NCBI GenBank assembly: GCA_030159075.1
Contig: BROG01000551.1
Span: forward strand, 62,001-126,000
DNA from: Atrina japonica
Taxonomy: Eukaryota; Mollusca; Bivalvia; Pterioida; Pinnidae
DNA length: 64,000 nucleotides
Reading direction: 5' to 3'
The translations under genes were made by a program, and so were the position numbers. Positions within the stretch are counted from its first letter, which is position 1. The number at the start of each line of letters is the position of its first letter. The notes under the pieces are model-generated. The model ran no database searches. It was given only the letters and a program-made list of their open reading frames with translations, and had not been told where the DNA came from. Below, in pieces: positions 15,401 through 63,746 of the stretch.

Positions 15401-18400
15401 ATTTTTATATAAAAAACTACTGAATGCAGATGATACCAGACTTCACAGGTATATACAGGTAAGAAAGTTAAAAACACTTTATATTAGAAATTTTATAACA
15501 ACTACTAGGTAATAAGACATTATGTGAATATTCTCTGGTACATGTATGCTCAGTCATTATCATTAAAATAGACAAAGTCTACCTGATCAGGTGTTTGTCA
15601 TGATACCTGGCAAAGCAACCATTCTTACATAAAGGTATGTCACAGAATGAACAGAAGAATGAAGTTTCAATTCCACGACCTTTTGGAGTTTTTCTGCCTT
15701 CAGATGAACACTCCTTACATATTTTTTTTCTACCTTGGATTTTTTCAAGTGAGTGATGACCAACAGATTCTTTTGGTATTTCAGACATAGCTTTTCTTTT
15801 ACCTGACCTGTATTTTCTACAGGTAAATCCAGCAATCAGCTGTTCTGCAATATCCATACGGAAGGATAGGTGGTCATAATTTTTAGGAGGGGGAGGGTTC
15901 TTCTTGGACTTTATGTATACAATATGCGAGTTAACAATACACAGGTTTATTACAAACCATAAAAGATATCGCCACCATTTCTTACCTGGACGACCAACAG
16001 GATAATACGAACGCATTTGATCAGATTTGTCAACACCACCCATATACATATTGTAATTAACATTACAGGAGGGCTTACCTTGCCCGTGAAAAGGTTGTTG
16101 TGATGTTGACAAAAAAAGTAACTGCCTTTTATCTTTGTATACAGTGGCAAGTAAATTGCCCTTTTGCATTTGGATGAGGTCACCATTATTTTTCAACTTG
16201 GCATTTTTTACCTGTGCAGGTAACCCTTTTCGATTACTCATTATAGTGCCACATACATAAGTGTTCACAAGACTAAGGTGTTCTGCTAATAACACAGAAC
16301 TGAAAAAACGATCATAATAAATATGATGATATTTATTGTGGAAAGGCTTTGTTAAATTCCACACGACATCATAGCCTAAGCCATGCATTCTACCACCAGA
16401 CTTTCTACCTGTATACACCTCAAAATTACTACAATAACCAGTCTCAGACTCACATAGTTCACAGACTTTCACCCCCCACTTCGTCGGCTTCGCTGGCATA
16501 TATTGCTTAAAAAAAAGACGACCTTTGAAGCCGACCATCGCTTCATCCGCACTTAAATGCTGGCCAGGTTTATAGACCGTTTTAAATTTGGCCACAACAC
16601 CATCTAGTAAGGGCCTTACCTTGAACAAGGGGTCGTAAAAGAGGGTCGTCACAGCCAGGTGTGACTGAAGTGTCACGGAGATGAATGTATTGGTTTAGCT
16701 TTAAAAATCTAGTTTTCGGCATAATACCGGAAATGTATGGACAGCCGTACCTTTTATCCTCACTTCAGTAACACCAGATACGTGGGAGCTGCTTCACTCC
16801 CATCATAATGTTAATTCCAATGTACGCACGTACCTCGGAAGCTGAAGTAGGTCGCCATCTTGGGTCACGACGGCCGCTTACCTGTTGCTGTTGTTCAGCA
16901 TATTTATATGTTTCAGCGGCGACCACTTCAAAGAAAGTTTGAGGGAGAAACAAGAAAAAATAATCCAGAGCTCTGGAATCTAAATTTAATGCATGCTGTG
17001 GACCAGATCGCTCAGAAAAAATAGGCAAATCAAAGGCTTTTAAATCACGTGACCAATTTTCATTGATAGTTGGGTTGGGAGATGGAGACAGGTCGTCATC
17101 ACTGAGGTCGGAATCCTGAGAACTCTCGTCCCCAGAATCAAAATCAATATCGGATTCGTCCCCATTTATTAAATCATCAAGCTCTTTTTCCTTTAGAGCA
17201 CACTTATTATTTGCCTCGGCAATATTTTCAGCCGAAAATCCTTCGAACTCTGAGTCGCTGTCAGTTCCTGAATCAGCCATAGTTGTTATGACGACGTAAA
17301 CAAACAATCACCGGTGAGATATAATAAAATACGTAAAATATGTTTTCTTGAATCAGCATTTCTAATGATAAAATCATAAAAGAAGTATGCTAATTTGTAA
17401 TAATATAATTATTTATGTGTTTGGCATTTTTATTTACTGTCGCTAGGATACAAAAAACAACAACACGTTTGCGGCCGGGTTGGGCCGGTTTGAACAAATG
17501 AGACGTCTTTATTTACGGCCGGATTCGGCCGGATTGAATGCTAAATTAAAACTCATGATTTTGGAACTTAAATTTGATAAATCAAATATATATGACTCTA
17601 AGACACTGACCATGATGATGGATTATAGTTTCAACTGTTTTTCAGCATGGATTTGTATATGGAGCTCTGAAGATTGGATGTATCAACCAGAAGCAGTTTA
17701 ACTCAATGTTTCAGCTTTTGACACATCAATGTACCCTTATATTGAAATGTCAACTAAATACTTATCACTCCCCTGGTATCAACCAGGAAAGTTACCCTCT
17801 ATAACAGGGTTGTCATGGCAGTGGAAATGACTGCTAATTACTTACTGCTATAATTGCCTAATGTTTCAGTCTGGAACAATTCTCTATTGCAATAGCAATG
17901 TTCTCTAACACTAAAACGTCTGCTAATTTTTTATCCCTAAAATCGGCTTGTTTTATCAAGGAACAATTACTCTATATTTAAGTGTTGCCATGGCAATGTA
18001 CATTAACACTGAAAGGTCAAGTAATTACTTACCACCACGATCGCCCTGTATTAGCCAGGAACAATTACTCTATATTTAAGTGTTGCAATGGCAATGTTAC
18101 CCAAACACTAAAATGTCCATTAGTTTTTGTATCCCTACAAATGCCTTGTATCTGCCAGGAACAATAACTCTTTATTTAAGTGTTGCAATGGCAATGTACC
18201 CAAACACTGAAATGTTCATTAGTTTTTTTCACCCCTACTATCGCTTTGTATCTGTAAGGAAAAATTACTCCTTTTTTGGCAATGTACATACCCTAACGTT
18301 GAAATGTCAATTAATCACTTACCACCATGATCGCCTTGTATCAGCCAGGAGCAGTTACTCTGCGGGTCGTAGTTTTCTGGGTAATTTGGTGATGTCAATA

Positions 18401-63746: not shown

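What the first reader, a model, noticed from the sequence alone, without database searches (positions are those of the whole stretch)
17760..63642. Splice-junction-seeded minisatellites across one gene
Tandem arrays in this cubilin gene repeatedly include the splice junction itself. Donor-spanning arrays are at exons 3, 18, 19, 21, 26, 27 and 28 (plus a decayed one at exon 1); acceptor-spanning arrays are at exons 4 and 24. The units are unrelated in sequence (20 to about 95 bp) but each begins in exon and runs into intron, or the reverse. That is about ten of 35 exons, far more than random placement in 90% intron would suggest. Independent, recurrent duplication starting at exon-intron borders is implied, perhaps because R-loops, U1 binding or AG|GT-containing direct repeats favour slippage there, or because selection tolerates duplication only when the outermost copy stays functional. 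I know of work on AGGT duplication creating introns, but not of arrays seeded at many junctions of one gene.
Basis: partly seen in the sequence, partly recalled or inferred. Interest (0 to 1): 0.92.

Follow-up and report, generated by a model that had tools for sequence, protein, structure and literature searches.

The report
Repeat arrays born at splice donors
In the cubilin gene of what is likely a bivalve mollusc, nine arrays of tandemly repeated DNA take in the end of an exon together with its splice signal, and such arrays probably form more often at the starts of introns than elsewhere, which would make splice sites a hot spot for this kind of mutation.

Summary
The arrays are real. The window holds 35 exons of a minus-strand cubilin gene (63% identical to Saccostrea cubilin). 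Exon parts encode conserved CUB/EGF ends, so copies ran from exon into intron; the spliced protein shows that the outermost site is the authentic one.

The chance claim is wrong as stated: junctions lie inside arrays less often than random placement predicts (5 donors + 1 acceptor; 9.7 + 9.7 expected). Against a fairer null (arrays intronic, entering exons by at most one unit) donors are about 3-4 times over-represented, acceptors not. Arrays carrying donor words are about 2.8 times commoner genome-wide than control and acceptor-like words. A DNAH6-like dynein exon and one other exon also carry donor-spanning arrays. Against: the rest of the gene alone is not significant, dynein genes show no excess, and three of six donor-word arrays read showed no exon.

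The structure is known: amphioxus 'mirages'. New here: a probable bivalve, the number in one gene, and a donor bias whose cause is inferred.

The parts
339..63746 (-). 35 cubilin exons of the window (EGFb 63643-63746 to C14b 339-488); the gene continues beyond both ends
   Evidence: 63% identity over 100% of the typed protein to Saccostrea cubilin
60251..61100 (-). 59-bp array over the donor of exon 3 (EGFd, exon 61071-61245); 30 bp exon + 29 bp intron per unit; 13 fitted copies, all with GT
59949..60024 (-). 13/26-bp array over the acceptor of exon 4 (EGFe, exon 59823-59954), 6 bp into the exon
35587..35767 (-). 25/50-bp array over the donor of exon 18 (C06a, exon 35743-35929)
32685..33029 (-). 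18-bp array at the donor of exon 19 (C06b, exon 33028-33188), 2 bp of exon by TRF
   Evidence: not called by the copy test
27285..29727 (-). 72-bp array over the donor of exon 21 (C07b, exon 29692-29845), TRF 33.6 copies; about 36 bp of exon end [10 protein letters not shown] in each unit
23508..23734 (-). 40-bp array reaching the acceptor of exon 24 (C09a, exon 23331-23512); 5 bp of exon match by eye
19971..20184 (-). 43-bp array at the donor of exon 26 (C10a, exon 20178-20359)
18787..19228 (-). about 24-bp (77-bp higher order) array over the donor of exon 27 (C10b, exon 19220-19382)
17887..18361 (-). 100-bp array past the donor of exon 28 (C11a, exon 18323-18436); a copy reaches 39 bp into the exon by alignment, TRF itself stops at 18270
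63180..63642 (-). weak, decayed likeness starting in the donor of exon 1 (EGFb)
   Evidence: sequence, by eye; not called by TRF

Best explanation
These are 'mirage' minisatellites: short tandem duplications that likely copied an exon's last bases together with its 5' splice site into the intron, and are predicted to be tolerated because the outermost, exon-attached copy keeps the authentic splice site. Shown: units include exon end, donor and intron start; the exon part encodes conserved protein, so the exon is the source; the spliced protein is continuous at the outermost site; donors, not acceptors, are over-represented against a null that confines arrays to introns; donor words are over-represented in arrays genome-wide. 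Inferred: the downstream copies are removed with the intron; birth or growth is favoured at 5' splice sites, most likely by transcription-coupled slippage between the donor and nearby donor-like GTRAG words. The acceptor-spanning arrays need no special cause.
For: Exon parts of the units encode conserved domain ends aligned with eight other bivalve cubilins, and 33 of 35 tested junctions are gap-free to Saccostrea. GT is kept at the junction-equivalent place in 64 of 69 fitted copies in eight arrays (at least three degenerate copies at exon 28 were not fitted). Strong GT sites: 5.8 per kb in donor-spanning arrays, 0.2 in other arrays, 0.76 in other intron. Donor edges 8 against 1.9-3.0 expected, acceptors 3 against 1.9-3.0; 8 of 31 arrays at score >=120. 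Donor words AGGTAAGT and AGGTGAGT: 19 and 14 distinct arrays on contigs C1-C27 against 13, 6 and 7 for an acceptor-like and two control words; rate ratio 2.8 after division by word frequency, P 6e-5. Donor-spanning arrays in unlinked genes: DNAH6-like P-loop exon and the exon in L046. Positive coding-strand GC skew in 8 of 9 donor arrays against 7 of 18 others, P 0.006, though the donor word itself raises it.
Against: The gene was picked because it looked so; in its unseen rest 2 donor edges against 0.5-0.8 expected, P 0.10-0.17. 14 dynein segments with 75 exon cores and 19 arrays hold one donor-spanning array, no visible excess; 33 other CUB exons hold none within 100 bp. Of the first six donor-word arrays read, one repeats an exon end, two run off the stretch and three show no exon, so the word itself, rather than the junction, may be what is favoured. 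One control word, TAGAAGTG, has 852 matches against 1390 for AGGTAAGT; its distinct arrays were not listed. Positions 60-100 bp into introns near donors have nearby copies as often as donors (24 of 118 against 11 of 59). No RNA or read data.
Confidence: 0.6

Rival explanations
1. Tolerance alone: tandem duplications arise everywhere in a minisatellite-rich gene, those inside exons are purged, and those overlapping a junction by less than one unit survive; the donor excess is chance in one selected gene.
For: Junctions are not hit more than intron at large; acceptors fit this null; no excess in dynein or other CUB exons; the unseen rest of the gene is not significant.
Against: Donor excess at every cut-off tried (30 settings, P <=0.008) and donor-word excess genome-wide.
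Confidence: 0.3
2. The rows of decoy donors are kept for a use, such as binding U1 to guard a long transcript against early polyadenylation or to tune splicing.
For: 74 GT sites at least nearly as strong as the authentic donor in nine arrays; GT kept in 64 of 69 fitted copies.
Against: Young arrays keep their words by descent; three of four exon-28 copies have lost the donor (by eye); units differ from junction to junction; no conservation between species could be tested.
Confidence: 0.06
3. Assembly artefact: collapsed or expanded repeats placed at exon edges.
For: No reads could be examined; exon 14 shows a one-base frame discrepancy at its donor.
Against: Copies differ from one another (mean identity 0.70-0.96 in the seven arrays with two or more fitted copies), units are unrelated between junctions, and the same structure occurs on other contigs.
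Confidence: 0.03

Closest known systems
Amphioxus 'mirages' (Adh3, globins BflGb6 and BflGb9, troponin C, PGBD5)
   Same: Minisatellite-like tandem duplications spanning an exon-intron boundary, at donors or acceptors, units of about 10-160 bp, reported not to disturb splicing (passages of PMC3087553 and PMC3902484).
   Different: Here a probable bivalve, nine donors in one gene, donors in excess over acceptors, and a genome-wide donor-word excess; no RNA evidence here.
Internal tandem repeats at exon-intron boundaries of human duplicated genes
   Same: Minisatellites that include exon-intron boundaries (passages of PMC2812944).
   Different: Those change coding sequence or make new introns; here the spliced protein is unchanged at the array junctions.
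Intron gain by tandem genomic duplication (AGGT model; potato RdRp case)
   Same: A tandem duplication that copies a splice site (PMC4974935, start of abstract in a listing only).
   Different: No new exon or intron was found at the array junctions; copies enlarge an existing intron.

Membership tests
Mirage minisatellites | Repeat unit includes the exon-intron boundary | tested here: met
   Seven donors and, thinly, two acceptors in the window
Mirage minisatellites | Minisatellite-size units (10-160 bp in the cases reported) | tested here: met
   Units of 18-100 bp at donors, 13/26 and 40 bp at acceptors
Mirage minisatellites | Normal splicing from the outermost site | tested here: inconclusive
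   Protein continuity with orthologues supports it; no RNA data
Mirage minisatellites | Length polymorphism or somatic instability | not testable with these tools
   One assembly, no reads, no second haplotype
Intron gain by tandem duplication | A new exon or intron in the spliced product | tested here: not met
   No insertion against Saccostrea cubilin at any array-spanned junction of the window

The most novel reading that the evidence does not exclude
5' splice sites are a genome-wide birthplace of minisatellites in this bivalve: a donor-specific mutational process, tied to transcription or splicing, keeps copying exon ends and their donors into introns, filling genes with rows of decoy splice sites.
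Probability: 0.35. Interest if true: 0.85.

Novelty: new member of a known kind. Interest (0 to 1): 0.6.

Why it matters
If the donor bias holds, it ties the birth of minisatellites to splicing or transcription, gives raw material for the idea that new introns and alternative donors arise from boundary duplications, and poses a splicing question: how the first of up to about 33 near-equal donors is chosen. Mirages would also no longer be a peculiarity of amphioxus.

Tried and rejected
Rejected: the array at 30408-31726 as donor-spanning at exon 20; the fitting donor is a GC site (GAG|GCAAGC) and the array starts 43 bp into the intron. Rejected: L040 and L037 as acceptor-spanning; by eye the arrays stop about 4 and 14 bp before the exons. 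Led nowhere: cox1 to name the species (0 matches); Rfam scan (0 matches). Not possible: relatives (none held for this genome). Not answered: a genome-wide count of the single word AGGTAAGT (replaced by counts in 326,200 fetched bases), a further control word AGTGATAG, and whether the 72-bp unit occurs elsewhere. Rows kept although weak: exons C15a, C15b and C27b outside the window are approximate (C15b's core has stops) and stayed in the 61-intron tests. Rows left out: 24 of 83 merged arrays lie outside the introns used (59 kept); four dynein exon pairs gave no intron and three of 28 introns were dropped for weak sites; one search leaves out degenerate copies. Distinct arrays were counted by eye, joining matches within 3 kb, from the first 100 rows; the list ends inside C27; TAGAAGTG, TGAGTGGA and TGGACTTT have match counts only.

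Full report
WHAT THE WINDOW IS. The window is C551:62001-126000 of an 832-Mb assembly in 2347 contigs. It carries, on the minus strand, 35 exons of a cubilin gene: EGF exons, then CUB domains with two exons each in this model. The spliced protein typed into one search matches Saccostrea echinata cubilin best (63% identity, 100% of the query), then other molluscs, so the animal is likely a bivalve near the oysters; its name is not known. The gene runs beyond the window at both ends.

THE ARRAYS. TRF finds 83 merged minisatellite arrays (period >=8, score >=50) in 144 kb, 43 of them in the window. Seven donors of the window are spanned: exons 3, 18, 19, 21, 26, 27 and 28. At exon 28 TRF stops 52 bp short, but a copy of the last 38-39 exon bases plus GTAAGT lies in the array. 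At exons 19 and 26 TRF enters the exon by only 2 and 1 bp. Two acceptors (exons 4 and 24) are included by only 6 and, by eye, 5 bp. Exon 1 is a weak, decayed case.

DIRECTION. The exon parts encode conserved domain ends, for instance GRGFHAMY at exon 21, [12 protein letters not shown] at exon 28 and YDYLEI at exon 18, aligned with eight other bivalve cubilins. The intron copies therefore derive from the exon. At exon 3 the copies resemble one another (0.96) more than they resemble the authentic exon part (0.88; intron part 0.97), as expected of sequence freed from coding constraint.

SPLICING. Against Saccostrea 33 of 35 tested junctions have no gap within five residues, every array-spanned one in the window among them. 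The outermost site is thus the authentic one. The nine donor-spanning arrays hold 74 GT sites that score at least 2 and within 1 bit of the authentic donor or better; an in-frame stop precedes the first listed decoy in 6 of 9 (exceptions: exons 19 and 26 and C27a). Strong GT sites (score >=4) number 5.8 per kb in donor-spanning arrays, 0.2 in other arrays of the gene and 0.76 in other intron. That the decoys are ignored by the splicing machinery is inferred.

Arrays cover 17.9% of intron and 1.2% of exon in the gene. Sliding the arrays along the gene predicts 9.7 of 61 donors and 9.7 of 61 acceptors inside an array; 5 and 1 are seen. With the copy test 64 of 300 random intronic positions are crossed, against 7 of 62 donors and 1 of 62 acceptors (score >=40). 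With 16-base probes and 12 matches, 11 of 59 donors and 3 of 59 acceptors have a nearby copy, against 24 of 118 positions 60-100 bp inside the donor and 15 of 118 inside the acceptor. Junctions are not hit more often than intron at large.

CHANCE, WITH A FAIRER NULL. Arrays cannot sit deep in exons. If they are placed uniformly in their introns with at most one unit of exon overlap, 1.9-3.0 array edges are expected at donors and 8 of 59 are seen (score >=50, period >=8; P 0.0003-0.008); at score >=120 it is 8 of 31 against 1.3-2.4 (P <=0.0022). Acceptors: 1-3 seen, 1.1-3.3 expected over the 30 settings. In the window alone 6 against 1.7 (P 0.006, score >=50); in the unseen rest 2 against 0.8 (P 0.17; P 0.10-0.13 at higher cut-offs). 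The window was chosen for its looks, so these P values flatter it.

CONTROLS IN THE SAME GENOME. Minisatellite coverage is 19.4% in the window; 9.4% in the rest of the gene; 1.3-5.6% in the C3, C22, C289 and dynein groups; 7.2% and 17.1% in the two flanks; and 58% in one stretch, L028. Among 25 dynein introns none has an array across a junction. Fourteen dynein segments (62,200 bp, 75 exon cores, 19 arrays) hold one donor-spanning array and no acceptor-spanning one. That one, at C411:79663-79835, repeats the end of the P-loop exon GPTGGGKTTVYR| of a DNAH6-like gene. None of 33 other CUB exons has an array within 100 bp.

GENOME-WIDE WORD TEST. Three donor words in a row (AGGTAAGT, gaps of 10-40): 1390 matches; reversed word 218. 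AGGTGAGT: 755, reversed 332. Acceptor-like TTTCAGGT: 622, reversed 520. Two other words with the composition of AGGTAAGT: 492 and 852. Divided by word frequency in 326,200 fetched bases the donor words stand at 2.97 and 2.87 and the six others at 0.48-1.60. Long arrays give many matches, so I also counted distinct arrays on contigs C1-C27: 19 and 14 for the donor words, 13 for the acceptor-like word, 6 and 7 for two controls; divided by word frequency 4.1 and 5.3 against 1.3-1.7, rate ratio 2.8, P 6e-5; AGGTAAGT against its two composition-matched controls alone 2.8, P 0.004. I read the first six donor-word arrays in list order: one repeats an exon end (L046; Pfam MOR2-PAG1_C below its cut-off, E 0.006, so possibly furry-like), two run off the stretch, three show no exon. 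The word excess is there; how much of it sits at real donors is open.

MECHANISM. Committed reading: duplications that take in a junction survive because the outermost copy keeps the authentic site (survival step), and their birth or growth is favoured at 5' splice sites (birth step). For the birth step I favour transcription-coupled slippage between the donor and donor-like GTRAG words. Donor arrays have positive coding-strand GC skew (8 of 9, two of them near zero; others 7 of 18; P 0.006), as R-loop-prone DNA does (recalled), but the donor word itself raises that skew. This step is inferred.

WHAT IS KNOWN. Arrays spanning exon-intron boundaries were named 'mirages' in amphioxus and are reported in Adh, globin, troponin C and PGBD5 genes, at both kinds of boundary, apparently without harm to splicing (passages of PMC3087553 and PMC3902484; the Adh paper of 2002 is not held and was not read). 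Human minisatellites at exon-intron boundaries can form new introns (passages of PMC2812944). A C. elegans minisatellite is over-represented near alternative splicing regions (abstract of PMC4039745). In the listings of my searches I saw no report of mirages in bivalves or of a donor bias; most subscription journals are not held.

VERDICT.

Noticed in passing
window 44310-44360 (exon 14, C04a donor): The donor holds a 9-bp tandem duplication (GTGCTGTAAGTGCTGTAAGT), and no canonical site joins exons 14 and 15 in frame: the model is off by one base, where oysters have one residue more. Sequencing indel, unusual site or broken allele.
   Followed up: partly
window 31764-31775 (exon 20, C07a donor): Probable GC-AG intron: GAG|GCAAGC is the donor that fits phase and protein.
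   Followed up: partly
whole gene: Arrays that do not span donors hold few strong GT sites (0.2 per kb) against 0.76 per kb in other intron; perhaps selection against decoys.
   Followed up: no
window 15582-16694, minus strand: An open frame of 371 codons inside the intron after exon 28, not identified.
   Followed up: no
window 14304-14447 and 55557-55691, plus strand: Two copies of a dispersed repeat with like translations ([15 protein letters not shown] / [15 protein letters not shown]).
   Followed up: no
L028 (C407:305948-310712): A 29-bp tandem array of about 4.8 kb in a stretch that is 58% minisatellite.
   Followed up: no
C551:144508-144636 (window scale 82508-82636): An N-terminal cubilin exon for the coiled-coil part; one copy found here where oyster proteins show two or three similar segments; the next array starts about 120 bp past its donor.
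   Followed up: partly
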